A stretch of 64,000 bases of DNA from Sphaerisporangium krabiense (GTDB taxonomy: Bacteria > Actinomycetota > Actinomycetes > Streptosporangiales > Streptosporangiaceae), in NCBI RefSeq assembly GCF_014200435.1, contig NZ_JACHBR010000001.1, forward strand, positions 3,317,501 to 3,381,500, in the 5' to 3' direction. This document shows positions 1-55,906 of the stretch, one piece after another. Under the pieces are notes generated by a model that was given only the letters and a program-made list of their open reading frames with translations, was not told where the DNA came from and searched no databases. Each line of letters begins with the position of its first letter. Position 1 is the first letter of the stretch. The translations under genes were made by a program, and so were the position numbers.

Positions 1-207
1 GCGGGGTACGGTGACGACGTGCGGCGGCGGCTGGTCGTCCGGCCGGGCATGACCGGCCTGTGGCAGGTGAACGGCCGATCCGATCTGTCATGGGAGGAAT
101 CGGTACGGTTGGACCTGCGTTATGTCGAGAACTGGTCTCTGACGCTGGATCTCCAGATCCTGTGGAAGACGTGGTCCGCCGTGGCGCGCGGCTCGGGTGC
201 GTACTAG
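1..207 (+). CDS. Undecaprenyl-phosphate sugar-1-phosphate transferase, C-terminal fragment
   Basis: The frame is open from the first base, so the 5' part lies outside the window. The 68 visible residues are the conserved end of the bacterial sugar transferase family (WbaP/WcaJ-like): RPGMTGLWQVNGRSDLSWEE, followed by the conserved Arg-Leu-Asp and Tyr-Val-Glu-Asn-Trp-Ser pattern and the usual Asp-Leu-x-Ile-Leu-x-Lys-Thr end. Family members transfer a sugar-1-phosphate from a nucleotide sugar to undecaprenyl phosphate at the inner face of the membrane, the first step of exopolysaccharide or O-antigen repeat-unit assembly. It sits directly upstream of the sulfate activation genes, which suggests the same pathway as the glycan genes at 16-33 kb. 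The sugar is unknown. Confidence 0.93.
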   Translation, partial: AGYGDDVRRRLVVRPGMTGLWQVNGRSDLSWEESVRLDLRYVENWSLTLDLQILWKTWSAVARGSGAY

Positions 208-296
208 CCCGAGGCCAGGCAGACGGCCCGGGGGCACACCCGCCCTCCGGCCTGGAACTCGGGGCGAGAGCATCTAGAAGGGCCAGGAACGGCATC

Positions 297-1082
297 GTGA
301 CGATACGCGACGACCACGCGCTCGCCGGCGATCTCGCCGCCGAGGCCGGCGAGAGGCTTCTGGCGCTGCGCGCCGACCAGGGCTTCGGTGACCCCACGGC
401 GCTGCGTCAGGCGGGCGACCGCCAGTCCCACCTCCACCTCACCGAGTCCCTGGCACGGCTGCGGCCGACCGACTACGTCCTGTCGGAGGAGGGCACCCGC
501 GAGGAGCGCCTGCATCCGCGCCGCCGCGTCGCGGACCGCGTGTGGATCATCGACCCGCTCGACGGCACCCGCGAGTTCGGCGAGGAGGGCCGCGCCGACT
601 GGGCCGTGCACGTCGCCCTGTGGCGGCGCGGCGACGCCACGGGCGGCGAGCTCGCGGCCGGGGCGATCGCGCTGCCCGCCCAGGGAGTGACGTTCACCAC
701 CGCCGCGCCGCCCGCGCTGCCCGCCCCGCGTCAGGGCAGGGTCCGCATCGCGGTCAGCCGCACCCGGCCGCCGGAGTTCGTCAAGAAGCTGGCCTACCTC
801 GTCGGCGCCGACATGGTGCCCATGGGCTCGGCCGGGGCCAAGATCGCCGCCGTGCTCACCGGCGAGGTGGACGCCTACGTCCACTCGGGGGGCCAGTACG
901 AGTGGGACTCCGCCGCTCCCGTGGCGGTCGCCCTGGCGGCCGGGGCCCATGCCAGCCGTATCGACGGATCTCCCCTGGTCTACAACCAAGAGAACCCCTC
1001 ACTCCCGGATATTCTGGTTTCCCTACCGGATCTGGCGCCGACCTTGCTCGCCGGGATCCGGGACGCGCACCGTCAGGGCTAG
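297..1082 (+). CDS. cysQ: 3'(2'),5'-bisphosphate nucleotidase, CysQ-like (inositol monophosphatase fold)
   Basis: 261 residues from a GTG start; an upstream in-frame extension to about 60 only reads through the previous gene in another frame. Motifs of the metal-dependent inositol monophosphatase superfamily are present: SEEG near residues 63-66, IDPLDGT at 85-91 and the late YEWDSAAP near 201-208, which supply the metal ligands. CysQ proteins hydrolyse PAP (3'-phosphoadenosine 5'-phosphate), the by-product of sulfotransferases, to AMP. It lies 18 bp before cysD, so it is very likely co-transcribed with the ATP sulfurylase genes. This supports a role in PAPS/PAP balance rather than inositol phosphate metabolism. 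Confidence 0.9.
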   Translation: MTIRDDHALAGDLAAEAGERLLALRADQGFGDPTALRQAGDRQSHLHLTESLARLRPTDYVLSEEGTREERLHPRRRVADRVWIIDPLDGTREFGEEGRADWAVHVALWRRGDATGGELAAGAIALPAQGVTFTTAAPPALPAPRQGRVRIAVSRTRPPEFVKKLAYLVGADMVPMGSAGAKIAAVLTGEVDAYVHSGGQYEWDSAAPVAVALAAGAHASRIDGSPLVYNQENPSLPDILVSLPDLAPTLLAGIRDAHRQG

Positions 1083-1100
1083 CTCCTCGGAGGAGAGCAG

Positions 1101-2015
1101 ATGCTTGCAAGCGACTACACGACGTCGCAGCTCGACGTCCTCGAGGCCGAGGCGATCCACATCATGCGTGAGGTCGCGGCCGAGTTCGAGCGTCCGGGTC
1201 TCCTCTTCTCCGGCGGGAAGGACTCGATCGTCATGGTCCGGATCGCCGAGAAGGCGTTCTGGCCCGCGCCGATCCCGTTCCCGCTCATGCACGTCGACAC
1301 CGGGCACAACTTCCCCGAGGTGATCGACTTCCGGGACCGGCGGGTCGCCGAGCTGGGCGCCCGGCTGGTCGTCGCGTCCGTCCAGGACTCCATCGACGCG
1401 GGGCGCGTCGTGGAGGAGACCGGCCGCCGCGCCAGCCGTAACCGCCTGCAGACCACCACCCTGCTCGACGCGATCGAGGAGAACGAGTTCGACGCCGTGT
1501 TCGGCGGGGCACGCCGCGACGAGGAGAAGGCCCGCGCCAAGGAGCGGGTCTTCTCGTTCCGCGACGACTTCGGGCAGTGGGACCCGAAGAACCAGCGGCC
1601 CGAGCTGTGGAACCTCTACAACGCGCGCATCCGCAAGGGCGAGCACATCCGGGTGTTCCCGCTGTCCAACTGGACAGAGCTTGACATCTGGGACTACATC
1701 CGGCGCGAGGAGATCGAGATCCCGTCGATCTACTACGCCCACACGCGCACGGTCTTCGAGCGCGACGGCATGCTGCTCGCCGACTCCGAGGTGGTCAGCC
1801 GGGGCGAGGACGAGCCGACCTTCGAGACGGTCGTCCGCTACCGCACGGTCGGCGACATGACCTGCACCGGCGCCGTCCAGTCCAACGCCACGACCGTCGA
1901 GCAGATCATCGCCGAGATCGCGGCCACCCGCATCACCGAGCGCGGCGCCACCCGCGCCGACGACCGCGCCTCCGAGGCCGCCATGGAAGACCGTAAGAAG
2001 GAGGGCTACTTCTGA
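1101..2015 (+). CDS. cysD: Sulfate adenylyltransferase subunit 2 (ATP sulfurylase small subunit)
   Basis: 304 residues, normal for CysD, with a GGAGGA ribosome site just before the ATG. The PP-loop SGGKDS at residues 37-42 binds ATP, and FGGARRDEEKARAKER is the conserved PAPS reductase/CysD-type motif. It forms a heterodimer with CysN and makes adenosine 5'-phosphosulfate (APS) from ATP and sulfate. It sits between cysQ and cysN on the same strand. Because glycan genes and three sulfotransferases are nearby, the product may serve sulfation as well as cysteine synthesis. The family assignment is secure; the destination of the sulfate is inferred. Confidence 0.96.
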   Translation: MLASDYTTSQLDVLEAEAIHIMREVAAEFERPGLLFSGGKDSIVMVRIAEKAFWPAPIPFPLMHVDTGHNFPEVIDFRDRRVAELGARLVVASVQDSIDAGRVVEETGRRASRNRLQTTTLLDAIEENEFDAVFGGARRDEEKARAKERVFSFRDDFGQWDPKNQRPELWNLYNARIRKGEHIRVFPLSNWTELDIWDYIRREEIEIPSIYYAHTRTVFERDGMLLADSEVVSRGEDEPTFETVVRYRTVGDMTCTGAVQSNATTVEQIIAEIAATRITERGATRADDRASEAAMEDRKKEGYF

Positions 2016-2106
2016 TGCCCCCCGCTCCCATGGCGCGCCCCGCGTGCCCTCGTCGCGCGTTGCGCGCCCTCGCCAGCCCCGCCGCTACCCCTGGAGACCG
2101 GCTCTG

Positions 2107-3369
2107 ATGGACATCTTGCGTTTCGCCACGGCGGGCTCCGTCGACGACGGCAAGTCCACGCTGATCGGGCGCCTGCTCTTCGACTCCAAGGCCATCTTCG
2201 AGGACCAGCTGGAGGCCGTCGAGCGCACCAGCCGCGACCGGGGCACCGAGTACACCGACCTGTCCCTGCTCACCGACGGCCTGCGCGCCGAGCGCGAGCA
2301 GGGCATCACCATCGACGTGGCCTACCGCTACTTCGCCACGCCGAAGCGGAAGTTCATCATCGCCGACACCCCCGGGCACATCCAGTACACCCGCAACATG
2401 GTGACCGGCGCCTCCACGGCCGACCTCGCGATCGTGCTCATCGACGCGCGCAAGGGCGTCGTCGAGCAGTCCCGGCGGCACGCCTTCCTCACCACGCTGC
2501 TGCGCGTGCCGCACCTGGTGCTCGCCGTCAACAAGATGGACCTCGTCGACTACTCGCAGGAGCGGTTCGAGGAGATCCGCGAGGAGTTCACCTCGTTCGC
2601 GGCCAAGCTCAACGTCGCCGACCTCACCTTCATCCCGATCTCGGCGCTGCACGGCGACAACGTGGTCTCCCGGTCGGAGAACATGCCCTGGTACCAGGGC
2701 ACCTCCCTGCTCCACCACCTGGAGAACCTGCACATCGCCTCCGACCGCAACCTGGTCGACGTGCGCTTCCCGGTGCAGTACGTCATCCGCCCCCAGCGGG
2801 CCACCGACCCCGCCTTCCACGACTACCGCGGCTACGCCGGGCAGGTCGCGGGCGGCGTGCTCAAGCCCGGCGACGAGGTCATGCACCTGCCGTCCGGCCT
2901 CGCCACGCGCGTGGCCGCGATCGACACCTTCGACGGGCCCGTGGACGAGGCGTTCCCGCCCATGTCGGTCACCCTCCGCCTGGAGGACGACATCGACATC
3001 TCACGCGGCGACATGATCTGCCGTCCCAACAACAAGCCGCAGGTCGCCCAGGACATCCAGGCCATGGTCTGCTGGATGACCGACGCGGTGAAGCTCGCGC
3101 CGCGCTCCAAGCTGGTCATCAAGCACACCACCCGCACGGCCCGCGCGATGGTGCGCGACCTGCACTACCGCCTGGACGTCAACACGCTGCACCGTGACGA
3201 GGCGGCGGCGTCCCTCGGCCTCAACGAGATCGGCCGCGTCTCGCTGCGCGTCACGCAGCCGCTCTTCGTCGACGACTACGCCAGGAACCGCCTCACCGGC
3301 GGTTTCATCCTGATCGACGAATCGACCAACGGCACCGTGGGCGCCGGCATGATCGTCGACGCCAGGTAG
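2107..3369 (+). CDS. cysN: Sulfate adenylyltransferase subunit 1 (GTPase subunit)
   Basis: 420 residues. ATG 2107 is chosen because MDILRFATAGSVDDGKST is the canonical CysN start; the open frame upstream to 2044 is a Pro/Arg-rich leader. GTPase motifs are complete: P-loop GSVDDGKST (10-18), DTPGH near 88 and NKMD near 142, followed by EF-Tu-like beta-barrel domains. GTP hydrolysis by CysN drives APS formation by CysD. There is no C-terminal APS kinase domain, unlike CysNC fusions, so a separate kinase is needed. A candidate is encoded at 33779-35032. About 90 bp separate it from cysD. Confidence 0.96.
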   Translation: MDILRFATAGSVDDGKSTLIGRLLFDSKAIFEDQLEAVERTSRDRGTEYTDLSLLTDGLRAEREQGITIDVAYRYFATPKRKFIIADTPGHIQYTRNMVTGASTADLAIVLIDARKGVVEQSRRHAFLTTLLRVPHLVLAVNKMDLVDYSQERFEEIREEFTSFAAKLNVADLTFIPISALHGDNVVSRSENMPWYQGTSLLHHLENLHIASDRNLVDVRFPVQYVIRPQRATDPAFHDYRGYAGQVAGGVLKPGDEVMHLPSGLATRVAAIDTFDGPVDEAFPPMSVTLRLEDDIDISRGDMICRPNNKPQVAQDIQAMVCWMTDAVKLAPRSKLVIKHTTRTARAMVRDLHYRLDVNTLHRDEAAASLGLNEIGRVSLRVTQPLFVDDYARNRLTGGFILIDESTNGTVGAGMIVDAR

Positions 3370-4328: not shown

Positions 4329-4471
4329 CGACCCGGGACACCGGCGCGGCCCGCGGCCATCGCGGGCGCTAGCGTCCTTCGCCCGAGCGTGAACTCGATC
4401 CGGCCCTCACGGAGAGACATGACCGACATGTCGTCTACGGGAGGGCCGGCCTTCATGCCATGGTGCTCACG

Positions 4472-5053: not shown

Positions 5054-5055
5054 CG

Positions 5056-13324: not shown

Positions 13325-13395
13325 GAACGTGGTCCTTCAATGACATGCATGGACAAATGAGACAGGAGGGTCCTAACCCATACAGCAATGGTTAG

Positions 13396-13414
13396 TTAGG
13401 ATAGCCTTGCCAAA
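13396..13414. promoter_or_regulatory. IdeR/DmdR1-type iron box
   Basis: TTAGGATAGCCTTGCCAAA agrees by my count at 15 of 19 positions with the actinobacterial IdeR/DtxR consensus TTAGGTTAGSCTAACCTAA. It lies between the divergent siderophore uptake operon and the AraC regulator, where an iron-loaded repressor would shut off both when iron is plentiful. Confidence 0.75.
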
Positions 13415-13445
13415 CATGGTTCCAGTGTCGACGAGAGGTCAGTCG

Positions 13446-15904
<2,459 letters not shown>

Positions 15905-16088: not shown

Positions 16089-17063
16089 GTGGGTGTTCGA
16101 GTGATCTTCATAGGCGGGCTGGGGCGTAGCGGTACGACGCTGCTCGAGCGGTTGCTGGGCGAGGTCCCTGGCGTCGCGCCGCTCGGTGAGGTGATCCATC
16201 TATGGGAACGCGGGATCATCGCCAGGGAGCCGTGCGGGTGCGGGGAGCCGTTCGGGGCGTGTGAGTTCTGGCGGCGGGTCGGCATCCGCGCGTTCGGCGG
16301 GTGGTCGTCCGGCCTGGCCGACCGCGTCCTGACGTTGCGACGCCGGGTCGACCGCACCCGGCGCATCCCCGCGCTGGCCTCCCAGCGCCTCCAGGTGGGC
16401 CTCAGCGGGTACACCCGGGCGTACTCCCGGGTGTACGAGGCGGCGGCCAAGATCTCCGGCCGCCCGGTCGTGGTCGACTCCAGCAAGCACGCCTCCCTCG
16501 CCTTCTGCCTGCGCACCTCGCCCGTGATCGACCTCAGCGTCGTCCACGTCGTCCGCGATCCGCGCGCGGTCGCCTACTCGTGGCACAGACAGGTCACCAG
16601 GCCCGAGAACGGCGGCGCCATGACCCGCTGGCCCCCCGTGCGGACGGCCGTCCACTGGCTCGTGCAGAACCTCGCCTACGAGCTGCTCGCCCGGCGCCGC
16701 GGCACCGTCATCCGCGTCCGGTACGAAGACCTGCTCGCCGACCCCCCGGCCGTCCTCGCGGCGCTGCTCGGCCGCCTCGGGCTCGGCGGGGTCGCCCTCG
16801 GCTTCCTGCGGCCGGGGATGGCCGAGCTGTCCGCCGCCCACACCTGCGCGGGCAACCCCATGCGCTTCACGGTCGGCGCCCTCGAACTCACCAGGGACGA
16901 CACCTGGCGCGAACGCCAGCCGCGCCTGCACCGCTGGCTGGTCACCGCGCTGACCTGGCCGCTCATGCTCCAGTACGGCTACCGCCCACGCCGCCGCCCC
17001 GCCCGGGAAGAGACCCGCGTCCCCCGCATCCCCGCCGGAGTCGCCGCCCAGGAGTGCCGATGA
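16089..17063 (+). CDS. Sulfotransferase family protein
   Basis: 324 residues from GTG 16089, with GGGGG 9 bases upstream; GTG 16101 is nearly as good, and the frame is open back to 16002. The N-terminal 5'-phosphosulfate-binding loop reads IFIGGLGRSGTTLLERLLGE, and VVHVVRDPRAVAYSWHRQV carries the Arg and Ser of the 3'-phosphate-binding motif. Such enzymes move sulfate from PAPS to a hydroxyl or amine. The stop overlaps the next start (ATGA), so it is coupled to a GT2 gene. The acceptor is probably a glycan or glycolipid, inferred from neighbours. Confidence 0.9.
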   Translation: MGVRVIFIGGLGRSGTTLLERLLGEVPGVAPLGEVIHLWERGIIAREPCGCGEPFGACEFWRRVGIRAFGGWSSGLADRVLTLRRRVDRTRRIPALASQRLQVGLSGYTRAYSRVYEAAAKISGRPVVVDSSKHASLAFCLRTSPVIDLSVVHVVRDPRAVAYSWHRQVTRPENGGAMTRWPPVRTAVHWLVQNLAYELLARRRGTVIRVRYEDLLADPPAVLAALLGRLGLGGVALGFLRPGMAELSAAHTCAGNPMRFTVGALELTRDDTWRERQPRLHRWLVTALTWPLMLQYGYRPRRRPAREETRVPRIPAGVAAQECR

Positions 17064-18040
17064 AGCCGATCGAACCCATGGAGCCGATGGCGCAGGGGAA
17101 GCCGATGGATCGCGAGAAGTCCCCGGAGCCGGCGGGTTCCGTGGGCGTCGTGATCCCCACGCGCGGCGACCGCCCGCACCACCTGTGCGCCGCCCTCGCG
17201 GCGGTCCTGGCCCAGGAGGCGCCCGGCGGGGTGGACGTCGTCGTGGTCGTGGACCGCGGGGACGTGACCGCCGTGACCCGCCAGGTGGACGCCGTCTCCG
17301 CGCGATGGCCCGGCCGGGTGCGGGTGATGGCGAACCACCTCACCCCCGGCCTGCCCGGGGCGCGGAACACCGGCATCGCCGCGCTCGGCACCCCGCTGGT
17401 GGCGTTCTGCGACGACGACGACCTGTGGTTGCCCGGCAAGCTGCGCGCGCAGCTCGCAGCGCTCGACGCCGACCCCGCGGCCGAGTTCGCCGGGTGCGCC
17501 GTCGAGGTCGAGTACGGCACCCACCGCGTCACCCGCCTCGCCGGCACCGACCGCGTCACCACCCGCCACCTCACGCGCTCGCGCATGATGATGGTCCACT
17601 CCTCGACGTTCCTGTTCCGCCGCGGCGCCGTCTGGCCCGACGAGAGCGCGCCCGGCGGGCACAACGAAGACTGGGATCTCGCGCTGCGCGCCGCCGGGCG
17701 GCATCCGATCGTCTACGTCGACCGCCCCCTGGTCCGCGTCCGCTGGGGCGGCTCGGCGTACGTCACCCGCTGGGCCGACCGCATCGCGGGCCTGGAATGG
17801 ATGCTCGCCCGCCATCCCGGCCTCGCCGCCGACCGGCGCGGCGCCGCCCGCGTCTACGGCCAGCTCGCCTTCCACAACGCCGCGCTCGGACGCCGCCGCG
17901 CGGCCGGGCGCTGGGCGTTACGCGCGTTCGCCGCCCGATGGGGCGAGCCGCGGGCGCCCATCGCGCTGGCGGTCGCGCTCGGCCTGGTCTCCGCCCGCTC
18001 GGTGCTGAGCGTGCTGCACACCCGCGGGCACGGCATCTGA
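17060..18040 (+). CDS. Family 2 glycosyltransferase
   Basis: 326 residues. After a Met/Pro/Lys-rich N-terminal tail the GT-A fold starts with GVVIPTRGDRPHHLCAALAA. The nucleotide-sugar/metal motif is VAFCDDDDLWLPGKLRAQLA, and GHNEDWDLALRAAGR is the usual acceptor-side motif with the catalytic Asp. It would add one sugar to a lipid-linked glycan at the cytoplasmic face. It overlaps the sulfotransferase upstream (ATGA) and the WecG/TagA gene downstream (TGATG). An in-frame TTA codon at 17918-17920 (residue 287) makes it a candidate for control by the rare tRNA-Leu(UAA). Confidence 0.92.
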   Translation: MKPIEPMEPMAQGKPMDREKSPEPAGSVGVVIPTRGDRPHHLCAALAAVLAQEAPGGVDVVVVVDRGDVTAVTRQVDAVSARWPGRVRVMANHLTPGLPGARNTGIAALGTPLVAFCDDDDLWLPGKLRAQLAALDADPAAEFAGCAVEVEYGTHRVTRLAGTDRVTTRHLTRSRMMMVHSSTFLFRRGAVWPDESAPGGHNEDWDLALRAAGRHPIVYVDRPLVRVRWGGSAYVTRWADRIAGLEWMLARHPGLAADRRGAARVYGQLAFHNAALGRRRAAGRWALRAFAARWGEPRAPIALAVALGLVSARSVLSVLHTRGHGI

Positions 18041-18837
18041 TGGCGCCGCGCACGACGACCGGCGCCCCGCGGCTGACGATCGGCGGCCTTCCGGTGGACG
18101 CCCTCACCGAGGAGGAGGTGGTCGGCCACGTCGTCGCCGCCCTCCGGCGGGGGGAGGGCGGCCACGTGGTCACCCCGAACGTGGACATCTGCCGTGCCTG
18201 CGCCCGTGACCCCGAGGTGCGGGCCATCATCGCGGGCGCCGACCTCTTCGTCCCCGACGGCATGCCGCTGGTGTGGGCGTCCCGGCTGCTCGGCACGCCT
18301 GTGCCCGCCCGCGTCACCGGCGCCGACCTGATCTGGTCGCTGTCGGAGGCGGCGGCGGCCGGCGGCCGGTCGATCTACCTGCTCGGCGGGCCGCCGGGGG
18401 TGCCCTGTAAGGCGGCGCAGGTGCTACGGGCGCGCTTCCCCGGCCTGCGGGTGGCCGGGGGGTCCGCGCCGCCGTACGGGTTCGAGAAGACGGCCGAGGG
18501 GTTCGCGGCCGTGCGCGAGTCCCTGGTGGCGGCCGATCCCGACATCGTCTTCGTCGGGCTGGGGTTCCCCAAGCAGGATCGGCTGATCAGCATGGTCCGC
18601 CGGGATCTGCCGGGCGCCTGGTTCGTCGGCTGCGGGTCCGCCATCTCCTTCGCCGCGGGGACGGCGCGCAGGGCGCCCGAATGGATGCAGCGGTCCGGCC
18701 TGGAATGGCTGTTCCGCCTGGCCTCCGAGCCGGGCCGCCTCGCCCGCCGCTACCTGGTCGACGATCTGCCGTTCGCGCTCCGCCTGCTCGTGGTGTGCCT
18801 GGTCAAACGGCTCCTTCGCGGGCGCGGCCCGTCGTGA
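18040..18837 (+). CDS. WecG/TagA/CpsF family glycosyltransferase
   Basis: 265 residues. GT26 hallmarks are the near-N-terminal GHVVTPNVDICRACARDPEV, ADLFVPDGMPLVWASRLLG, RVTGADLIWSLSEAA, YLLGGPPG and VGLGFPKQDRLIS. In relatives it transfers ManNAc-type or other sugars to lipid-linked GlcNAc. Together with the two coupled upstream genes it forms a three-gene unit building and sulfating a surface glycan. The C-terminal basic helix (LLVVCLVKRLLRGRG) may hold it to the membrane. Confidence 0.93.
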   Translation: MAPRTTTGAPRLTIGGLPVDALTEEEVVGHVVAALRRGEGGHVVTPNVDICRACARDPEVRAIIAGADLFVPDGMPLVWASRLLGTPVPARVTGADLIWSLSEAAAAGGRSIYLLGGPPGVPCKAAQVLRARFPGLRVAGGSAPPYGFEKTAEGFAAVRESLVAADPDIVFVGLGFPKQDRLISMVRRDLPGAWFVGCGSAISFAAGTARRAPEWMQRSGLEWLFRLASEPGRLARRYLVDDLPFALRLLVVCLVKRLLRGRGPS

Positions 18838-25166: not shown

Positions 25167-26114
25167 TCACGGGCGGGTCAGGGCGAGGATGCGGGCGATC
25201 TCGTCGGTGGTGAGCTGGTCGCGGTGGCCGGCGAGGGCCCGCTGGGGGTCCATGGGGCGGTAGGCGGTGCGTGACAGGCCGTGCCACCGGAAAGCCCCGG
25301 CGGTGGCGCGCGCGCGTGACGATCGCGGTTCTCGTGCCTGCCGGGAGGCCCGGGTGATCGTTCGCTCGGCTGTGGGGGACCAGGTGAGGCCGCACCAGGC
25401 GTACAGGTCGCGGTAGCCGTTGAGGGGATCGGTGACCAGATCCTCGTAGCGGACGACGCGGATGCCGGGGTGCCGTGCGGACAGCGTCTCGGCGACCGTT
25501 CTGGCGGCGCGCCACAGCGCGGCGGTCGTCGTCAGGCCGTCCCCCGAACCGGCCAGAGCGGACAGGTCGCGCACACACGGGTGATCGCGGACCAGCAGGG
25601 GCTGCCGGAGCAGTTCGCGGACGTCCACCGTCCAGCCGAGCCGCCGCCAGCTCGCCACGAGGGACACCGGGTCGCGCACCAGCAGGACCACCCGGCAGTC
25701 GAGCCGCTCGGCGAACCATCCCGCCGAGAACAGCGCGAACGGGTCGTCCAGCAGCGCACGGCGTCCGAGCAGCCTGCCGGCCGTGAACGAGGACGCGTTC
25801 CTGACCAGCCGGGCGAGGTCGCCGGGGCGGCGGTTGCGGCGCAGCTCGGCCGCGTACCCGTAGCGGAGGGCCACGGTTCCGGAGAAGGCGCGCAGCCACG
25901 GCTCCTCGCCGTCGGGGCAGATGTACTGGAACCGGTGGCGCACGGTGGCGTCGAGCACGCCGGGGGAGCGGCCGGGCGGGCGGCCCGGGTTGAGCGGCTC
26001 GTTCACGTACACCGCCTCGCCGCTCGCCGCGAGCATCTTCCCCGCCCAGCTCGTCCCGCTCCGGGGCAGCCCGGTCACCAGGATGGGCGGGCCGCCCGCA
26101 CGCCGGCCGATCAC
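25167..26114 (-). CDS. Sulfotransferase family protein
   Basis: 315 residues. The PAPS-binding loop ILVTGLPRSGTSWAGKMLAA lies at 11-30, and VVLLVRDPVSLVASWRRLGW carries the 3'-phosphate-binding Arg and Ser. The remainder is compatible with Sulfotransfer_1/3 folds. Its ATG overlaps the stop of the flippase gene (ATGA), so it is the last gene of the minus-strand polysaccharide operon that begins near 32.4 kb. A carbohydrate acceptor is inferred from that position. A convergent SARP gene ends 23 bp away. Confidence 0.9.
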   Translation of the reverse strand: MIGRRAGGPPILVTGLPRSGTSWAGKMLAASGEAVYVNEPLNPGRPPGRSPGVLDATVRHRFQYICPDGEEPWLRAFSGTVALRYGYAAELRRNRRPGDLARLVRNASSFTAGRLLGRRALLDDPFALFSAGWFAERLDCRVVLLVRDPVSLVASWRRLGWTVDVRELLRQPLLVRDHPCVRDLSALAGSGDGLTTTAALWRAARTVAETLSARHPGIRVVRYEDLVTDPLNGYRDLYAWCGLTWSPTAERTITRASRQAREPRSSRARATAGAFRWHGLSRTAYRPMDPQRALAGHRDQLTTDEIARILALTRP

Positions 26115-27601: not shown

Positions 27602-28459
27602 TCAGCGGCGCCAGGAGGGGACATCGCCGAGCCAGTCGCACAGCTTGAGGTCCCAGGGGACGAAGTGCTCGGAGAGCTCCTCGCGCAGCGACCGCGGCAT
27701 CTCGGCCGGGCGGGGACGGGCGTTGTGCCGCTCGAACACCGGGTCGCCGAGGCGCGGCAGGCCGAGGAACTCCAGCACCTGGTCGTACACGGGCTCGGGG
27801 GTCGCGAAGAACCGCCCGCTGTCGATCACGAGGATGCGGCGGCGCGCGACCACGGACTCCAGGCGCGCGAGCTGCTCGGCGTACTGCCCGCGGGCGACGT
27901 AGGCGTGGTGCCGGTGCGCGTGGCTGTGGCCGTACGGCTCCTCGCACAGCCGCTCGATCTCTCCGGCCAGCCGCGAGGGCTCCAGCTCGACGGCGCGGGC
28001 GAACGACCGCTCGGTCTCGAACCCGCGCGCGACCTCGTGGGCATGGGCGGAGTACGCCCGCTCGACCGGGTCGCGCACCAGCACGATCATCTTGGCGCCG
28101 GGCAGGTCACGGGCCAGGCGGTACGGCGACAACGGGTGGAACATGTAGTAGGGCGAGGACTCGAAGGCCAGCGGGCGCGTGCCGTACCGGCGGTGCAGGC
28201 GGGCCGCCCTGGCCCGCAGCGGGAAGTGGGCGCGGTACCACGACAGCCCCTTGTCGTAGGCCGTGTCGAAGTAGTGGACGCCCTTGCGCAGGACGGGCTT
28301 GAGCACGAGAGGGTGCTGGGCCAGGGCGCGGTACAACGAGGTCGTGCCGCAGCGTTGCGCGCCGACGATCAGGAAGGACGGCAGCAGGCGCCCGCCGACG
28401 GTGAGCCGCCCCGCCGTGTGCGACACGGCGTGGGCGGATCGTTTGACGGTGGGGTTCAC
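27602..28459 (-). CDS. Sulfotransferase family protein
   Basis: 285 residues from GTG 28459, coupled by GTGA to the kinase-like gene upstream. The PAPS loop SFLIVGAQRCGTTSLYRALA is close to heparan- or Nod-type sulfotransferases, and MIVLVRDPVERAYSAHAHEV is the 3'-phosphate motif. The segment FESSPYYMFHP and C-terminal YDQVLEFLGLP agree with Sulfotransfer_1/NDST-like enzymes, which sulfate sugars. This is the best candidate for carbohydrate sulfation in the locus. Confidence 0.93.
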   Translation of the reverse strand: MNPTVKRSAHAVSHTAGRLTVGGRLLPSFLIVGAQRCGTTSLYRALAQHPLVLKPVLRKGVHYFDTAYDKGLSWYRAHFPLRARAARLHRRYGTRPLAFESSPYYMFHPLSPYRLARDLPGAKMIVLVRDPVERAYSAHAHEVARGFETERSFARAVELEPSRLAGEIERLCEEPYGHSHAHRHHAYVARGQYAEQLARLESVVARRRILVIDSGRFFATPEPVYDQVLEFLGLPRLGDPVFERHNARPRPAEMPRSLREELSEHFVPWDLKLCDWLGDVPSWRR

Positions 28460-29589
28460 GTGATGACCTCCTGATGGTCGACGAGGGGCGCGAGCCACCG
28501 CTCGGGCGGGCCGAGCGGCTGGAGGCCGTCCCGCTCGTGACGGTCGGCCAGGGCGATCAGGTACCGGACGGCGGTCTGGCGGGCCTGCCCCGCCGACAGG
28601 CCGAAGGGGGCGAGCGTGGGCAGCGCCTGGGCCAGGCAGGCGGCGGCGGCCACCTCGGGGGACATGCGCTTCAGCGCGCGCTGGAAGAAGTGGTGAAGCG
28701 CGTCGAACCCCAGGGGGACACCGGTCTCGAACCGCTCCCAGTCCCACACCAGCAGCCGCCCGCCGGGCCCGGGCGCCACGTTCCACGGCGCGAAGTCCCC
28801 GTGCCAGGCGTGCCCGCCGGCGAGATCGATCCAGGGCCCGTGCCCGGCGGCCCGGGGTTCGTGGTGTGCCGGCGTTCCGTGGTGCCGCGGAGCGGGGTGC
28901 GGGAGAGAGGAGCCCAGGGTGGCGATCTCGGCGATGGCGCGTTCGAGGAGAGAGGCGGGGACGCGGCGGCGGCTGGTGGGGAGCGGGGAGAGCGCGAGGA
29001 CCTCCAGGCCGTTCCAGGTGCCGTGGTGGAGGACGGTGGGCGCGACCACCGTGCTCAGCGGGGCCGCGGCCAGCATGCGGAGGGTGGCGCTCTCGTGCCG
29101 GACCAGCGCGCGCGAGCGGTCGGTGTCGCCGACCTTGACGAACGCCAGCGGCTCGCCCGAGGGCGTGCGGACCTCCAGGATGGGCTTGCGGTTGGCGCGC
29201 CGGGCCGGGCGGACGTGCAGCAGGACGGTGACCGGGCGGCCGAGGACGTCGGCGAGGTGGCCCTCGATCGTGCCGGGGCCGCTCGGCAGCCGGCGGCGTC
29301 CCGGCAGCCACAGCGACCGCGGCACGAGCCGCCGCGGCAGGAACCGGCTCGGCACGAGCGCGTAGGGGGTGTCCCGGCGAACCGGGCCCCGCCCGGCCGC
29401 CGGCTCGGCCGCGGCATGACCGTTCACGGGTTCGGTGATGGGGCGGGCCGGTCTATCGGGGGTGCGAAGGGTGGGGCGGGGCCTGGTGCGGGTGTCCGGG
29501 CGGGTGTCTTCGCGGGTGAGGTCTTCGGGCGGGTAGAGCAAGAGGATCACCTCGTCGAGATAGCGCAGCCGCGCGCGAAAGTCCCTCAT
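28456..29589 (-). CDS. Aminoglycoside phosphotransferase-like kinase in glycan cluster
   Basis: 377 residues. The catalytic loop GHAWHGDFAPWNVAP and the metal motif LLVWDWERFETG are intact, so it looks like an active kinase of the APH/choline-kinase fold. The N-terminal lobe is unusual: about 90 residues of Pro/Arg-rich sequence precede a degenerate nucleotide-binding lobe (LEVRTPSGEPLAFVKVGDTD). It overlaps the O-antigen ligase gene (ATGA) and the next sulfotransferase (GTGA). The substrate could be a sugar or lipid of the glycan pathway; antibiotic resistance is unlikely here. Confidence 0.8.
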   Translation of the reverse strand: MRDFRARLRYLDEVILLLYPPEDLTREDTRPDTRTRPRPTLRTPDRPARPITEPVNGHAAAEPAAGRGPVRRDTPYALVPSRFLPRRLVPRSLWLPGRRRLPSGPGTIEGHLADVLGRPVTVLLHVRPARRANRKPILEVRTPSGEPLAFVKVGDTDRSRALVRHESATLRMLAAAPLSTVVAPTVLHHGTWNGLEVLALSPLPTSRRRVPASLLERAIAEIATLGSSLPHPAPRHHGTPAHHEPRAAGHGPWIDLAGGHAWHGDFAPWNVAPGPGGRLLVWDWERFETGVPLGFDALHHFFQRALKRMSPEVAAAACLAQALPTLAPFGLSAGQARQTAVRYLIALADRHERDGLQPLGPPERWLAPLVDHQEVIT

Positions 29590-31034
29590 GAAGGGCGCTC
29601 CACGTCTGTCATGGGGCCTGTCATGGGGGTCGTCACGGGAGCGGACATCGGAGCCGTCGGCCGGGTGCTGTCCCCGTTCGACTGCCCCGCGAAGCGGGGG
29701 TGAATCGGGGAGGTAGGGAGAAGACCGTCGGCGCCGTTCCTCCACAGCAGGGCGAACGAGATCATGTACAGGGTGAGCGCGGTGATCAGCCCGTCGTAGA
29801 CGAACATGTAGAGCAGCGCGAGGATCATGACCAGCGTGCCCGCCCGGCCGACGGGGGTGCGGTCGCGCCAGTGACGGCGGACGGCCCCGGCGAAGAACGC
29901 GACGTACAGCGCGGCCCCGGTGAAGCCCTGAGTGATGAGCAGGAGCCAGAGCTGCCCGTCGCTGCCGAGCGGCGGATGCCCGCACTCGGCGCACCAGTCC
30001 GTCTTGCCGGTGGTGATCGTCTGGTAGTTGCCGTAGGCGTTGCGGGTGTTGCCGTACCCGATGATCGGGGAGTGGGCGGCGGCCTCCAGGGTGGCGGCGA
30101 CGGTGAAGGCCCGGATGCGGTTGCTGTGCGGGCTGTCCAGACGCTGGGCCACGATGCCGGCGAGCGGCCCGGCGGCGAGCAGGAGCCCCGCGACGGCGAC
30201 GGCGGCGCCGATCACCAGCCCGGTGCGGGGCCGCGCGCGGGCCAGCGTGTACGCCAGCGAGACGGCGAGGCCGATCCACAGGCCGCGGTTGAGCGAGTAG
30301 ACGATGGGGATCGCCGCCACGGCGACCGCCGCCGCGCACAGCGCCCGCCGCACCGGCCCGCCGTACACCCACCAGCCGACGACGAACCAGACCAGCAGCA
30401 CCGACAGGTTGCCGCCCCAGGCGTTGGCCCACTCGAAGGGCGCCTCGGGACGCGGCGAGGCGTGCCCGAGGACGTGCTGGATCTGCGCCGCCGTGGGGTG
30501 GATCAGGTTGCGGACGTAGGAGTTCCCGCTGACCCAGGACGGCAGGAGCGTCTCGACCGGCGAGGTGAACGTGAACCGCGGCGCGACGACGCCGAGCAGC
30601 CCCCCGGCCACGGTGGTGAGGAACAGCGCGCCGAGCATGCCCACGAGCGCGCGCCGCGGCAGCTCGCGCTCGGTGAGGTTGACCAGGTAGAGCACCATGA
30701 CGACCAGCGCCACGTACAGCGTGAGACGCATGGCGTACCCGAGGACGCGGCCGGTGCCGAGCTCGCCGTACGTGCCGGGGGGCGACTCGCCGAGCATGAC
30801 CGCGCTGACGAGGTACCCGGCGACGAGCAGGGCCCACAGGCCCATGCCCTTCGGCACGCGGACGGGCCTGCGCCGCCACAGCACGACCGCCATGGGGACG
30901 GCGGCCACGATGATCGAGAGGCCGCCGAAGCCGAGCGCCCACCAGACCGGGTAGCCGACGAGGTAGCCGGCGATCGGCCAGGCCGCGGGCGCGGGCAGGC
31001 GCACGCGGGACGGCCAGGGGGGAGGGAGGCTCAT
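29586..31034 (-). CDS. O-antigen ligase/polymerase family membrane protein (Wzy_C-like)
   Basis: 482 residues, with ten or more membrane helices. The large periplasmic loop between late helices contains SPIIGYGNTRNAYGNYQT, corresponding to the Wzy_C/WaaL motif (hPxxGxGxG). In relatives it polymerises repeat units or transfers the glycan to its carrier at the outer face. It is followed by the coupled kinase-like gene. The start at 31034 lies 7 bp after the stop of the chain-length protein gene. Confidence 0.9.
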   Translation of the reverse strand: MSLPPPWPSRVRLPAPAAWPIAGYLVGYPVWWALGFGGLSIIVAAVPMAVVLWRRRPVRVPKGMGLWALLVAGYLVSAVMLGESPPGTYGELGTGRVLGYAMRLTLYVALVVMVLYLVNLTERELPRRALVGMLGALFLTTVAGGLLGVVAPRFTFTSPVETLLPSWVSGNSYVRNLIHPTAAQIQHVLGHASPRPEAPFEWANAWGGNLSVLLVWFVVGWWVYGGPVRRALCAAAVAVAAIPIVYSLNRGLWIGLAVSLAYTLARARPRTGLVIGAAVAVAGLLLAAGPLAGIVAQRLDSPHSNRIRAFTVAATLEAAAHSPIIGYGNTRNAYGNYQTITTGKTDWCAECGHPPLGSDGQLWLLLITQGFTGAALYVAFFAGAVRRHWRDRTPVGRAGTLVMILALLYMFVYDGLITALTLYMISFALLWRNGADGLLPTSPIHPRFAGQSNGDSTRPTAPMSAPVTTPMTGPMTDVERPS

Positions 31035-31041
31035 GGCGGGC

Positions 31042-32361
31042 TCACGAGGCCCGGGCGCCGGGGTCGGCGGGTGGGCGGCCGATCGCGGGGCGGCGGCCGG
31101 CCGCGGCCGAGGACGTCAGCAGGATCACGCCGAGCGGCGAGATCTCGGTGCGCCGGAGCTGGCGTACGGCCTGGGCGAGCTGCTTGGACCTGGCCACGCG
31201 GCTCTCGACGACGAGCAGGGCGGCGTCGGCGCGGGCCTCATGGTCGGTGCGGACCCAGATGGGGGCGAGGCCGGTGAGGGCGAGGCGGAGATCGTCGGCG
31301 ATGGGCTCGGGGTCGACGCCGGGGGTGACGCCGCGCACGAGCAGTTCGCCGCCGTCGCGCAGGTGGCGGGCCACGGCCATGGCGAGCTCGCGCAGCTCGC
31401 GGGCGTTGCCGCCCTTGCACAGGACGGGCAGGCCGGTGAGGCGCTCGATGTCGGCGGCGGTCCTGAGCCGGGTGTCGAGGCGGTCGCGCAGCATGGCGGC
31501 GCCGGTGCCGGCGAGCAGGCCGAGGAACAGCCCGCTGCCCAGGTACAGCGGCGGTCGCGGCCGGGTGGGGGAGTCGGGCGGCCGGGCGTCGCTGATCACG
31601 CTGCCGGGGGTGACCGCGACGGTCTTGAGCGCGTCGTGCTTGAGGGTGAGCGCGTAGACCTGCCGGGTGAGGACGTTCTGCCGCTGGACGGCGATGGTGC
31701 GGGCGGCCGAGCCTCGCGGGGCGCGGGGAAGGGCGGCGACGACGGCGGCGAGGGCGGAGTCGACCTGGCGCAGCTTGCCGGACAGGGCCTTGAGCTGGGC
31801 GTCGATGGCGTGCCGCGCCGCCGACTCGCGCTGGGCGAGGTAGCCCTTGGCGAACGCCTGCGCCCCGGCGGCGGCGCCCGCGGGGTCGTCGGCGGCGTAG
31901 GACACGGCCAGGACGGCGGAGTTGGGCGGCACGTTGACGGTGACGCGCTCGCGCAGCGCCTCGGGATCCTGGACCTTGAGGATGCGGGCCGCGCGGGCGG
32001 CGACGACGGCGGAGTGGGCGATCTGGGCCTCGGTGTCGAGGTTGAGCGGCTCACGCTGGCGCTGGGTGGTCTGGTTGGTCTGGTCCTGGACGCCGGTCGG
32101 CGCGACGAGGACCTCGGCCGTGGCGGTGTAGGAGGCCGGGGACAGGCCGAGCGCGAGGCCCCCGAGCGCGAGGCCCCCGAGCAGGAACCAGGTGAGCGTG
32201 ACGCGCCGCCGCAGCAGCATCGCGCCGAACCTGGCGAACTCCGCGGGCTCCGCGGGCTCCGCGGGCTCGCGCCGGGCGACCAGGCCGCGCGGGCCGTAGC
32301 CGTTGTCCGGGCCGCCGGGGCCGCCGGGGCCGCCGGGGAGTGAGGACGCCGGGTGGCTCAT
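31042..32361 (-). CDS. Wzz/BY-kinase-like chain-length determinant with degenerate kinase end
   Basis: 439 residues from ATG 32361, where GAGAGG lies 13 bases upstream; ATG 32397 is an alternative. A Pro/Gly-rich tail is followed by a first helix (VTLTWFLLGGLALGGLALGL), a Wzz extracellular domain, and a second helix (LYLGSGLFLGLLAGTGAAML) then DRLDTRLRTAADIERLTGLP, as in tyrosine autokinases. The kinase-like end lacks Walker A: where GxGKST is expected it reads VRGVTPGVDPEPIADD. It probably sets glycan length or forms the export complex without kinase activity. First gene of the minus-strand operon. Confidence 0.88.
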   Translation of the reverse strand: MSHPASSLPGGPGGPGGPDNGYGPRGLVARREPAEPAEPAEFARFGAMLLRRRVTLTWFLLGGLALGGLALGLSPASYTATAEVLVAPTGVQDQTNQTTQRQREPLNLDTEAQIAHSAVVAARAARILKVQDPEALRERVTVNVPPNSAVLAVSYAADDPAGAAAGAQAFAKGYLAQRESAARHAIDAQLKALSGKLRQVDSALAAVVAALPRAPRGSAARTIAVQRQNVLTRQVYALTLKHDALKTVAVTPGSVISDARPPDSPTRPRPPLYLGSGLFLGLLAGTGAAMLRDRLDTRLRTAADIERLTGLPVLCKGGNARELRELAMAVARHLRDGGELLVRGVTPGVDPEPIADDLRLALTGLAPIWVRTDHEARADAALLVVESRVARSKQLAQAVRQLRRTEISPLGVILLTSSAAAGRRPAIGRPPADPGARAS

Positions 32362-32680
32362 GGCAGCGGCAGGCCTCTCGGTGCGGGGGTCGTCCATCGG
32401 GGTTCGGTGCTGATCGGCGCCGTTCGAGCGGGACGCGAAAAGGGCGGGCCGCCGGGAACGGGTCCTGAGAACTATAGGCACAACCCAAGATTTCTCGATC
32501 GCATACGAGCGTTTTCGTGGACGGCGAACGGCCCGGCTGGACCGGGATATCGGGATATTTCATTCTCCATGACATCGCAGCTCAGCGCGGAGGGGCGAGT
32601 TTCCGGCCGTTCGGTGCGCTTTAGTGGGAAGGTGAATACCGGCCTTCTGAGGGAAACGACTAAAGGGAGGTTTGGTCGCC
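32362..32680. promoter_or_regulatory. Divergent promoter region between Wzz-like and GH26-like genes
   Basis: This 319-bp region has lower GC than the flanking genes and holds no supported gene. On the minus strand TATAGT (plus 32471-32476) is a candidate -10 for the Wzz-like operon. An 8-bp tandem repeat CGGGATAT (32543-32558) lies near the middle. AAAGGGAGG (32662-32670) is the ribosome site of the GH26-like gene. Confidence 0.5.
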
Positions 32681-33757
32681 TTGCGTAGAGTGGCGGGAAT
32701 ATGGTTTTTCGGCATCGGGCTCGCCGCCGGATGCGGGCTGATCGTCTACGCCGTCGCGTCGGTGAAACCGCCGGAGCGCGCCGTCGCCACCGACCGCTCG
32801 CCGGGCGCCGACCTGCCCGTCCCGAGCGGGGCGCCCGGCTGCGTGGCCACGGCCAAGCTGATCCCGAGCTGCGGCGCCTGGTGGGGCATGGCCCCGGACG
32901 TCTTCGGCGGCAGGCCGCCGTCCCGGGCCATCGCCTTCGCCGAGCAGCGCATGGGCCGCAGGGCCGACATCGTCCACGTGTACCACCGCGGCTGGGAGCC
33001 GTTCCCCACGCCCGAGGAGCTCCACCTCGCCAAGAAGCGGCTGCTGCTGATCAACTGGAAGCCCTCGATCCGCCGCACCTGGGCCGATATCGCCGCCGGG
33101 GCCCTCGACGACCGCATCGACCGCGTCGCCGCGACGATCCGGCACCGGCTCCCGCGCCGCTTCTTCCTCACCATCCACCACGAGCCGGAGAACGACGTGC
33201 GCGAGAAGCCCGGCTCGGGCATGACCGCCGAGGACTACGCCGCGATGTACCGGCACGTCGTGCTGCGCCTGCGCGACCAGGGGGTGCGCAACGCCGTCAC
33301 GGTCATGACGTACATGGGCGCGCCGAACTGGGCGGCGAAGCCGTGGTTCGAGCGGCTCTACCCCGGCGACGACGTGGTGGACTGGATCGGCCTGGACCCC
33401 TACGCCGACCACCGGGTGAACGACTTCGCCGGCCTGGTCGACAAGCGGCGCGCCGACCAGGGCGACTGGCCCGGCTTCTACCGCTGGACCCAGCAGCGCT
33501 TCCCCGGCAAGCCGATCATGATCGCCGAGTGGGGGGCGTTCGAGCGGCACGACGACCCCGCGTTCAAGGTGTCGTTCTTCAACTCGGTCCGCCGGCAGAT
33601 CCGGGGCTACCCGCAGATCAAGGCGCTGGTCTACTTCGACTCGCCCATCGCGCCCCGCGGCGACACCCGCTTCGACTCCAGCGTCCCCGCCGGGCGCGCG
33701 TTCGCCGAGCTGGCCCGCGCGCCCTACTTCAGCTCCACGCCCGTCCCCGACCACTGA
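32681..33757 (+). CDS. Secreted or membrane-anchored GH26-like glycoside hydrolase
   Basis: 358 residues from TTG 32681, ten bases after GGGAGG; TTG 32672 is too close and GTG 32690 rather far. An N-terminal hydrophobic segment (VAGIWFFGIGLAAGCGLIVY) exports or anchors it. The (beta/alpha)8 domain has FFLTIHHEPEND with the acid/base Glu and IMIAEWGAFE with the nucleophile Glu, matching GH26 (beta-mannanase-like) topology. It is divergent from the glycan export operon and may trim or degrade the exported polysaccharide. The linkage is unknown; other clan GH-A families are possible. Confidence 0.83.
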   Translation: MRRVAGIWFFGIGLAAGCGLIVYAVASVKPPERAVATDRSPGADLPVPSGAPGCVATAKLIPSCGAWWGMAPDVFGGRPPSRAIAFAEQRMGRRADIVHVYHRGWEPFPTPEELHLAKKRLLLINWKPSIRRTWADIAAGALDDRIDRVAATIRHRLPRRFFLTIHHEPENDVREKPGSGMTAEDYAAMYRHVVLRLRDQGVRNAVTVMTYMGAPNWAAKPWFERLYPGDDVVDWIGLDPYADHRVNDFAGLVDKRRADQGDWPGFYRWTQQRFPGKPIMIAEWGAFERHDDPAFKVSFFNSVRRQIRGYPQIKALVYFDSPIAPRGDTRFDSSVPAGRAFAELARAPYFSSTPVPDH

Positions 33758-33778
33758 CAGGGCCGGGGACGCGGGGCC

Positions 33779-35032
33779 TCAGCGCACCCAGCCGCCCGAG
33801 GTGAGCAGGCCCAGCACCGTGCCGACGGCCCGGTCCACCGGCATGCCGGTGGTGTCCAGCGTCAGGTCGGCGTCCTCCGGCTCCTCGTAGGGGTCGGAGA
33901 TGCCGGTGAACGCCGGGATCACGCCCGCGCGGGCCTTGGCGTACAGGCCCTTGCGGTCGCGCCGCTCGCACTCGGCGAGCGGAGTGGCGACGTGGACGAG
34001 CAGGAAGTCGGCGCCGACGGCCTCCACCATGTGCCGCACCTCCTCGCGGGTCGCCGCGTACGGGGCGATCGGCGCGCAGATCGCGAGCCCGCCGTGCCGG
34101 GCGACCTCGGCGGCGACGAAGCCGATCCTGCGGATGTTGAGGTCGCGGTCCTGCTTGGAGAAGGTGAGGCCCGCCGACAGCAGCCGCCGCACCACGTCGC
34201 CGTCCAGGAACGTCACCGTGCGGCCGCCGCGTTCGAGCAGGGCGTCGTGCAGGCCGCGGGCGATCGTGGACTTGCCGGAGCCCGACAGGCCCGTGAAGAA
34301 CACCACCAGGCCGCGCCGGTGCGGCGGGCCGGGCAGCGTGACCGGCTCGGGCGCGGCGAGATGCTCCTCGGCGCCGAACGCGGACGCGATGTGCTCGCGC
34401 AGCTCGAGGTCGATCTCGGGCTCGCGCGGCGCCAGCGGCACCACGGCCACCTCCGTGCCCTTGGGCAGGGCGTCGCGGGCCTTGAGCGCGGCGCGCACCA
34501 CGGCGGGGCCGCCCTCCCCGTAGGCCAGCGGGAGCAGCAGGACCGCCGCGTCCAGTTCGCGGGCGGTGGCGGTGACCTCGTCCAGCGAGTCCAGCGGGCC
34601 GCGCATGGTGACGGCCAGCACCGGACGGTCGCCCATGGCGGCGCGGACCTCGGCGGGAGGACGGCGCAGCCGCGCGAAGGGGCCGTGCTCGGGCTCGCCC
34701 AGCGAGGTCACCGGGCCCGCGACCAGCCCGTCGGCCGTTCGCTCCGTCACCTTCATCACGGCCACGGCCGCGCCCTCGGGGTCGCGCAGCGTCAGTTCCT
34801 GCCCGGCGGACACCGGATGGTCGTGCGGTACGGTCAGCGTCACCGGGTCGGGCCAGGGGGTGCCGTCGGCGAGCCGGCCGCTCTCGACCACCGAGGCCAG
34901 GTCGGCCGAGCCGAGGAACCCGGTCAGCGGGGCGAAGGCCCCGGACAGCAGCAATTCGAGGTCGGCGAGCTCGTGGGCGCGGGGCACCCAGTCGAGGACG
35001 GGGCCGGCGGCGGTCTCCTCTGCGTTTCCCAC
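33779..35032 (-). CDS. cysC: Adenylylsulfate (APS) kinase with PUA-like N-terminal domain
   Basis: 417 residues from GTG 35032. ATG 35107 would add 25 residues rich in codons rare here (CTA, CTT, CAA, TAT), and a TATCCT box ends 6 bases before the GTG, so a leaderless start is preferred. Residues to about 100 resemble the ATP sulfurylase PUA-like domain (AFAPLTGFLGSADLASVV); the following region lacks the QxRNPxHxxH motif, so no sulfurylase activity is expected. The kinase domain is complete: VFFTGLSGSGKSTIARGLHD, TFLDGDVVRRLLS and AGVIPAFTGISDPYEEPE. It converts APS to PAPS, the donor for the nearby sulfotransferases. Confidence 0.92.
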   Translation of the reverse strand: MGNAEETAAGPVLDWVPRAHELADLELLLSGAFAPLTGFLGSADLASVVESGRLADGTPWPDPVTLTVPHDHPVSAGQELTLRDPEGAAVAVMKVTERTADGLVAGPVTSLGEPEHGPFARLRRPPAEVRAAMGDRPVLAVTMRGPLDSLDEVTATARELDAAVLLLPLAYGEGGPAVVRAALKARDALPKGTEVAVVPLAPREPEIDLELREHIASAFGAEEHLAAPEPVTLPGPPHRRGLVVFFTGLSGSGKSTIARGLHDALLERGGRTVTFLDGDVVRRLLSAGLTFSKQDRDLNIRRIGFVAAEVARHGGLAICAPIAPYAATREEVRHMVEAVGADFLLVHVATPLAECERRDRKGLYAKARAGVIPAFTGISDPYEEPEDADLTLDTTGMPVDRAVGTVLGLLTSGGWVR

Positions 35033-55905: not shown

Positions 55906-55906
55906 C

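What the first reader, a model, noticed from the sequence alone, without database searches (positions are those of the whole stretch)
1..35032. Putative sulfated surface glycan locus with its own PAPS supply
The window carries a complete sulfate activation set (cysQ, cysD, cysN at 297-3369; APS kinase at 33779-35032), three sulfotransferases (16089, 25167, 27602) and a glycan assembly set: a sugar transferase, GT2, WecG/TagA-type GT, Wzx-like flippase, ligase, Wzz-like protein and GH26-like hydrolase. Sulfotransferase genes are translationally coupled to glycan genes (ATGA or GTGA overlaps). CysQ would remove the PAP by-product. A sulfated capsule or exopolysaccharide is rarely described in actinomycetes. 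What is inferred is the common product.
Basis: partly seen in the sequence, partly recalled or inferred. Interest (0 to 1): 0.8.

Follow-up and report, generated by a model that had tools for sequence, protein, structure and literature searches.

The report
Sulfated-polysaccharide gene locus of actinomycetes
A soil bacterium carries, close together, genes that build and export a surface polysaccharide and genes that make the activated sulfate needed to decorate it, an arrangement kept across related bacteria, which suggests that they coat themselves with a sulfated sugar polymer that has not yet been isolated.

Summary
The finding is real and its main reading is well supported, with two corrections. 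The window lies in a Sphaerisporangium genome (Streptosporangiaceae). It holds cysQ-cysD-cysN, three PAPS-type sulfotransferases, GT2, WecG, Wzx, Wzy, Wzz, GH26, an APH-fold kinase and an APS kinase; no 'sugar transferase' was found. The parts form one old locus: in sister genera cysQDN abuts the sulfotransferase-glycan genes. Ten genes correspond to the wps-1 cluster (plus AMIS_7390) of Actinoplanes missouriensis (Tezuka & Ohnishi 2026), whose knockouts spoil sporangia and for which a sulfated polysaccharide was proposed, not shown. Added here: the APS kinase carries a decayed ATP-sulfurylase half, so it should need CysDN; it is the only clear APS kinase in both genomes, and both CysH carry the 4Fe-4S APS-reductase signature, so PAPS should serve sulfation rather than cysteine, which would explain the 'unexpected' sporangium defect of the AMIS_7390 mutant; the Streptosporangiaceae form adds a third sulfotransferase and linked cysQDN. 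CysDN is the only ATP sulfurylase found, hence shared with cysteine supply. Against: some relatives keep the APS kinase without the glycan genes, and outside the family cys genes are mostly not nearby. No sulfated product has been isolated.

The parts
297..1082 (+). cysQ-like PAP phosphatase (removes the by-product PAP)
   Evidence: PF00459; 5djf E 5e-72; below NCBIfam CysQ cut-off
1101..2015 (+). cysD, ATP sulfurylase small subunit
   Evidence: only CysD found in the genome
2107..3369 (+). cysN, ATP sulfurylase GTPase subunit
16089..17063 (+). sulfotransferase ST1 (WpsB counterpart; start may be 16101)
   Evidence: PF13469; 54% to the A. missouriensis gene
17060..18040 (+). GT2 glycosyltransferase (WpsA counterpart)
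   Evidence: 57%
18040..18837 (+). WecG/TagA/CpsF glycosyltransferase, GT26 (WpsC counterpart)
   Evidence: PF03808 E 6e-56; 52%
25167..26114 (-). sulfotransferase ST3; no counterpart seen in the 38 kb read around wps-1
   Evidence: PF13469
26111..27541 (-). Wzx-type flippase (WpsG counterpart)
   Evidence: PF01943; 42%
27602..28459 (-). sulfotransferase ST2 (WpsH counterpart), heparan-sulfate-sulfotransferase-like
   Evidence: 59%
28456..29589 (-). APH-fold kinase (WpsI counterpart)
   Evidence: invariant HGD....N and WDWER in 20 sequences; fold match; 36%
29586..31004 (-). Wzy-type polymerase / O-antigen-ligase-like protein (WpsJ counterpart)
   Evidence: PF04932 just below cut-off; 42%
31042..32361 (-). 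Wzz-type chain-length protein (WpsK counterpart)
   Evidence: GNVR/Wzz below cut-off; profile match E 3e-91 in A. missouriensis
32690..33757 (+). GH26 hydrolase (A. missouriensis has two copies: WpsE 28%, and one beyond the APS kinase 43%)
   Evidence: PF02156; C. thermocellum-type endoglucanase H 2bv9 E 3e-9 (organism recalled)
33779..35032 (-). two-domain APS kinase: decayed ATP-sulfurylase remnant (residues 19-97 recognisable) plus intact APS kinase (240-393); AMIS_7390 counterpart
   Evidence: activity not assayed
37099..37791 (-). SAM methyltransferase, linked member of the locus in relatives; orthology to WpsF not shown
   Evidence: in 62 of 65 full-length relatives

Best explanation
The locus makes a sulfated polysaccharide by the Wzx/Wzy route. 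CysDN makes APS; the two-domain APS kinase (33779-35032) turns it into PAPS; WecG and GT2 build an oligosaccharide on the lipid carrier, begun by an enzyme outside the window; ST1, ST2 and ST3 add sulfate in the cytoplasm and the APH-fold kinase probably adds phosphate; Wzx flips the unit, Wzy polymerises it under Wzz control, the GH26 enzyme trims the polymer outside, and CysQ removes PAP. The product is most likely a matrix of sporangia, spores or hyphae. Shown: gene content, conserved order, correspondence to wps-1, loss of sulfurylase motifs, one clear APS kinase per genome. Inferred: substrates, place of sulfation, identity of the product.
For: Synteny: cysN next to ST1 (25-376 bases between match ends) in 11 of 35 relative loci; of 65 full-length named loci ST2, Wzy, Wzz, GH26 and kinase are in 65, Wzx and ST3 in 64, APS kinase in 63. 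ST2 and APS kinase 5.4-14.4 kb apart in 23 of 23 genomes with both on one contig; 8 of 31 have them on different contigs. Ten genes correspond to wps-1 plus AMIS_7390, where deletions disturb sporangia (PMC13390465). Sulfurylase motifs gone; one clear APS kinase; no PF01747; 4Fe-4S-type CysH. dN/dS 0.13-0.48 for 12 genes.
Against: No chemistry anywhere. The APS kinase is kept in 37 of 37 family genomes though 11 lack an ST2 match better than E 1e-75; G026 and G028 have cysQDN and APS kinase with no glycan gene in the 20 kb read; G020 and G189 keep only kinase and ST2 there. Outside the family 11 of 13 loci read have no cys or APS-kinase gene within 20 kb. wpsB (ST1) loss in A. missouriensis leaves sporangia normal by SEM. 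AMIS_7390 was not co-activated with wps-1. Wzy and Wzz scores are below Pfam cut-offs.
Confidence: 0.72

Rival explanations
1. The sulfotransferases act on a glycolipid, lipid-linked oligosaccharide or small molecule and not on a polymer; the polysaccharide genes are neighbours with a related but separate product.
For: G020 and G189 keep the kinase and ST2 beside cysDN with no Wzx or Wzy in the 20 kb read. Mycobacterial and rhizobial sulfotransferases act on lipids and oligosaccharides (passage in PMC8205485). The family Sulfotransfer_3 also holds other enzymes.
Against: Overlapping genes with Wzx and kinase, constant order, and the same squashed sporangia for wpsH, wpsG, wpsJ and wpsK mutants.
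Confidence: 0.15
2. The cys genes serve cysteine supply and general sulfation; their place beside the glycan genes is inherited accident, glycan genes having been inserted into or deleted from an old mfd-APS kinase-cysQDN neighbourhood.
For: G026 and G028 have cysQDN, APS kinase and mfd together without glycan genes; CysDN is the only ATP sulfurylase found; the APS kinase is in 37 of 37 family genomes, all with at least two sulfotransferase match stretches.
Against: In A. missouriensis the APS kinase lies beside the glycan genes with no cys or mfd match in 38 kb, and the PF01507 genes are over 1.4 Mb away. CysH is of APS-reductase type. Deletion of AMIS_7390 hits sporangia while growth looked normal.
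Confidence: 0.1

Closest known systems
wps-1 cluster plus AMIS_7390 of Actinoplanes missouriensis (PMC13390465)
   Same: GT2, ST1, WecG, GH26, Wzx, ST2, kinase, Wzy, Wzz and APS kinase all have counterparts; the stretch Wzx-ST2-kinase-Wzy-Wzz is collinear
   Different: Here a third sulfotransferase and linked cysQDN; there a DUF4262 gene (WpsD), a second GH26, and cysD and cysH far away
xss cluster for synechan, Synechocystis (PMC8205485, passages)
   Same: Wzx/Wzy-type cluster with two sulfotransferases; product shown to carry sulfate
   Different: Eight glycosyltransferases, cyanobacterial, 'PAPS' and 'APS kinase' do not occur in the text; sequence relation not tested
Two-domain APS kinase of Thiobacillus denitrificans (3cr8) and the Entamoeba enzyme (PMC13213808, passages)
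   Same: Sulfurylase-like N-terminal half in front of an APS kinase; 3cr8 is the best solved match (E 7e-92)
   Different: Here the sulfurylase half is shorter (kinase begins near residue 240, against 363 in 3cr8); no activity data
Heparan sulfate 3-O- and N-sulfotransferases
   Same: ST2 profile matches 3bd9, 1t8t, 1nst (E 1e-21 to 1e-23)
   Different: A glycine stands beside the conserved His where the animal enzymes have Glu (alignment; catalytic role of that Glu recalled); acceptor unknown

Membership tests
wps-1-type locus | GT2, GT26, two sulfotransferases, GH26, kinase, Wzx, Wzy, Wzz together | tested here: met
wps-1-type locus | APS-kinase gene beside the cluster | tested here: met
   linked in 63 of 65 full-length relatives
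wps-1-type locus | needed for normal sporangia | not testable with these tools
   shown only in A. missouriensis
Wzx/Wzy-dependent polysaccharide locus | flippase, polymerase, chain-length protein | tested here: met
   Wzy and Wzz just below Pfam cut-offs, supported by order and by counterparts
Wzx/Wzy-dependent polysaccharide locus | initiating sugar-phosphate transferase | tested here: not met
   none among the 40 gene calls of the window; rest of genome not searched for it, and wps-1 as described has none either
PAPS-dependent sulfotransferase | 5'- and 3'-phosphate-binding motifs | tested here: met
   all three genes (motif roles recalled)
Bifunctional PAPS synthetase (Sat-CysC) | sulfurylase active-site motifs QxRN, HxxH, GRxHxG | tested here: not met
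   so not filed here as bifunctional
Two-domain APS kinase with inactive sulfurylase half | remnant sulfurylase half plus intact kinase P-loop | tested here: met
Two-domain APS kinase with inactive sulfurylase half | kinase activity without sulfurylase activity | not testable with these tools
   needs an enzyme assay
Sulfated exopolysaccharide system (synechan kind) | ester sulfate in the polymer | not testable with these tools
   no product known

The most novel reading that the evidence does not exclude
Streptosporangiaceae and Micromonosporaceae share an ancient pathway for a sulfated, glycosaminoglycan-like structural polymer, made by heparan-sulfotransferase-like enzymes with a PAPS module beside them, and used as a general spore or hyphal matrix, not only in sporangia; the kinase and methyltransferase may cap the chains, as WbdD does for an O antigen (a weak fold match; WbdD's role recalled). 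It would be the first sulfated polysaccharide shown in Gram-positive bacteria.
Probability: 0.4. Interest if true: 0.85.

Novelty: new variant of a known kind. Interest (0 to 1): 0.62.

Why it matters
The two papers read on the point say that bacterial sulfated polysaccharides are reported only from cyanobacteria (PMC13390465, PMC8205485; passages). A conserved locus with its sulfate-activation module makes the actinomycete case directly testable and offers a reason for the sporangium defect of the AMIS_7390 mutant that its authors call unexpected: loss of PAPS, not of cysteine. The locus also occurs in genera not known for sporangia (Nonomuraea, Microbispora; morphology recalled), so a role beyond sporangia should be sought.

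Tried and rejected
Rejected: the APS kinase as a working bifunctional PAPS synthetase (motifs gone). Rejected: cysDN as a supply dedicated to the locus (only ATP sulfurylase found). Rejected: chance neighbourhood. Searches for prior reports of sulfated polysaccharide in these bacteria; among the listings only PMC13390465 was on the point, and subscription journals are mostly not in that library.

Limits and rows dropped: A1 and the 80 named loci were chosen by ST2, so they over-represent carriers; 80 of 565 relatives were kept by the tool, and 15 of these 80 are shorter than 20 kb and were left out of the counts. The 8 genomes with ST2 and APS kinase on different contigs were left out of the distance range. 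The Fisher test ignores relatedness, includes incomplete genomes and counts the weak APS-kinase match of G042 as none. In one search the frame of another gene can hide a gene in the same stretch. The motif test counts 141 reading frames, with loci of one genome repeated and some frames truncated or kinase-only.
Full report
What is there. The three sulfotransferases have both PAPS-binding motifs, and the overlaps with glycan genes are ATGA, GTGA or TGATG. CysQ is closest among solved structures to the PAP phosphatase of M. tuberculosis (5djf, E 5e-72), though it stays below the NCBIfam CysQ cut-offs. Wzy and Wzz score just under their Pfam cut-offs. The gene at 28456-29589 has no Pfam match but is a kinase: HGD....N and WDWER are invariant in 20 relatives, and an AlphaFold model (pLDDT 76.5, pTM 0.74) matches aminoglycoside phosphotransferases and a fructosamine kinase (E 2e-5 to 3e-5, TM-scores only 0.35-0.50).

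Where it lies. The closest named relatives are Sphaerisporangium species; genome G006 of the same genus has a 479,021-base contig, the length of the named S. album record. The window's genome is 8.53 Mb in four contigs.

One locus. In 11 of 35 relative loci cysN lies 25-376 bases (between match ends) from ST1: L054, L056-L061, L063, L065, L067, L070. In Sphaerisporangium the gap is wider: 12.7 kb in the window and 5.8-18.8 kb in six more genomes (G002, G003, G004, G006, G008, G009); in G001 and G010 no cysN lay in the 20 kb fetched, G005 ends after 6.6 kb and G007 was not fetched there. Of 80 named loci 65 are longer than 20 kb; in these GH26, kinase, Wzz, ST2 and Wzy occur in 65, Wzx and ST3 in 64, APS kinase in 63, methyltransferase in 62, mfd in 60, ST1, GT2 and WecG in 56, cysN in 48, cysD in 45 and cysQ in 42. 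They were picked by ST2 and reach 10 kb each way, so the outer counts are lower bounds. Their titles name 14 genera besides a record bearing the old name Actinomadura, Nonomuraea and Microbispora among them. ST2 and the APS kinase lie 5.4-14.4 kb apart in 23 of 23 genomes that have both on one contig; in 8 of the 31 genomes examined they are on different contigs. dN/dS against three relatives is 0.13-0.48 for 12 genes; cysQ could not be aligned to them.

Published counterpart. Tezuka and Ohnishi (PMC13390465; abstract, sections 6 and 16, part 1 of 2 of section 17, and passages read) describe wps-1 of A. missouriensis. Genome G572 has one contig of 8,773,466 bases, the length I recall for strain 431; its ST2 lies at 785 kb, and a neighbouring protein has DUF4262 at residues 27-152, exactly as the paper prints for WpsD. 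Its genes match the window: GT2 57%, ST1 54%, WecG 52%, Wzx 42%, ST2 59%, kinase 36%, Wzy 42%, Wzz by profile (E 3e-91), GH26 28% and 43% in two copies, APS kinase 66% in the kinase half and 46% in the other. In the paper wpsA, C, G, H, I, J and K mutants make squashed sporangia; the wpsB (ST1) mutant looks normal but releases fewer spores; AMIS_7390, the APS-kinase gene, gives a severe defect that the authors call unexpected and discuss in terms of sulfur amino acids, while no macroscopic difference in growth was seen. AMIS_7390 was not co-activated with the cluster. 'PAPS' does not occur in the text.

PAPS supply. The window protein has a sulfurylase remnant (PF14306, residues 19-97) and an intact APS kinase (240-393). 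The sulfurylase active-site motifs (recalled) are missing here and in the A. missouriensis protein; of 141 reading frames with the kinase only L086 has them. The best solved match is 3cr8 of T. denitrificans; a paper titled on its structural basis for absent sulfurylase activity is cited in a reference list that I saw, not read. The Entamoeba enzyme has a sulfurylase-like domain that modulates its kinase (PMC13213808, passages). Each genome has one clear APS kinase; in the window's genome a second match just over the cut-off (21.7 against 21.1 bits, E 9e-4) is taken as noise. No PF01747 sulfurylase was found in the window's genome, and PF01507 gives only CysD and CysH in each. Both CysH carry CC..RK, GCxxC and ECGxH, the 4Fe-4S signature of APS reductases as I recall it; some such enzymes also accept PAPS (recalled). 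So PAPS is probably not needed for cysteine, as in M. tuberculosis, where the abstract of PMC4373884 has APS enter the cysteine branch and PAPS serve sulfolipids. CysDN must feed both branches.

Evidence against. The APS kinase is in 37 of 37 family genomes sampled, of which 11 have no ST2 match better than E 1e-75 (two of these, G012 and G024, have one near E 1e-55 and 1e-50). G026 and G028 have cysQDN, APS kinase and mfd without a glycan gene in the 20 kb read; G020 and G189 keep only kinase and ST2 there; G004 has no match for Wzy, ST2, Wzx, ST3, WecG and GT2 at the locus. All 37 have at least two match stretches for the sulfotransferase family, so the kinase may serve other sulfotransferases. 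Over 60 genomes the two co-occur (both 51, sulfotransferase only 1, kinase only 3, neither 5; Fisher p 6e-5), uncorrected for relatedness.

Spread. The ST2 profile (E at most 1e-40) matches 70 of 394 genomes of the class and 278 of 300 genomes of a second family, Micromonosporaceae by the identity of its ST2 with that of Micromonospora sp. WMMA2032. These are counts of ST2-type genes, not of whole loci. Of 20 further loci read, 15 show ST2, Wzx and Wzy together; of the 13 outside the window's family 11 do, but 11 of these 13 have no cys or APS-kinase gene within the 20 kb. So the glycan core is wider than the sulfate-activation linkage, which is a trait of Streptosporangiaceae and, for the APS kinase, also of A. 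missouriensis.

Mechanism. PAPS is cytoplasmic (recalled), so the sulfotransferases most likely act on the lipid-linked repeat before flipping. ST2 resembles heparan sulfate sulfotransferases but lacks the glutamate that stands beside the conserved histidine there (role recalled), so it may use another base. The kinase may phosphorylate the same unit, or with the methyltransferase cap the chain; this is a guess from a weak fold match to WbdD (rank 22, E 3e-4).

Verdict. A real, conserved locus, most likely for a sulfated Wzx/Wzy polysaccharide: a variant of a kind first described in 2026, with a third sulfotransferase and linked sulfate activation. The product remains to be seen.

Noticed in passing
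window 8674-14273: Siderophore-type uptake genes (ABC ATPase, two FecCD permeases, siderophore-interacting protein, binding protein) and an AraC regulator sit between cysN and ST1; of the nine Sphaerisporangium stretches read only that of G008 has the uptake genes, so this is a recent insertion into the locus.
   Followed up: partly
window 50870-53830: NACHT-domain STAND NTPase of 986 aa (PF05729), a type of protein also known from anti-phage defence (recalled).
   Followed up: no
window 22999-25143: BTAD-type transcriptional regulator directly beside ST3; possible regulator of the locus, but no match was seen at the locus in most relatives.
   Followed up: no
window 55547-57029: A gap of about 1.5 kb in the gene calls that holds a tRNA-Leu(taa) at 55833-55907.
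   Followed up: no
L086 (G046): A distant actinomycete keeps all three sulfurylase motifs in front of the APS kinase, a possible ancestral state of the decayed form.
   Followed up: partly
L069 and L075 (G021): Three tandem ST2-type genes on each of two contigs of one relative, a local expansion of the sulfotransferase.
   Followed up: no
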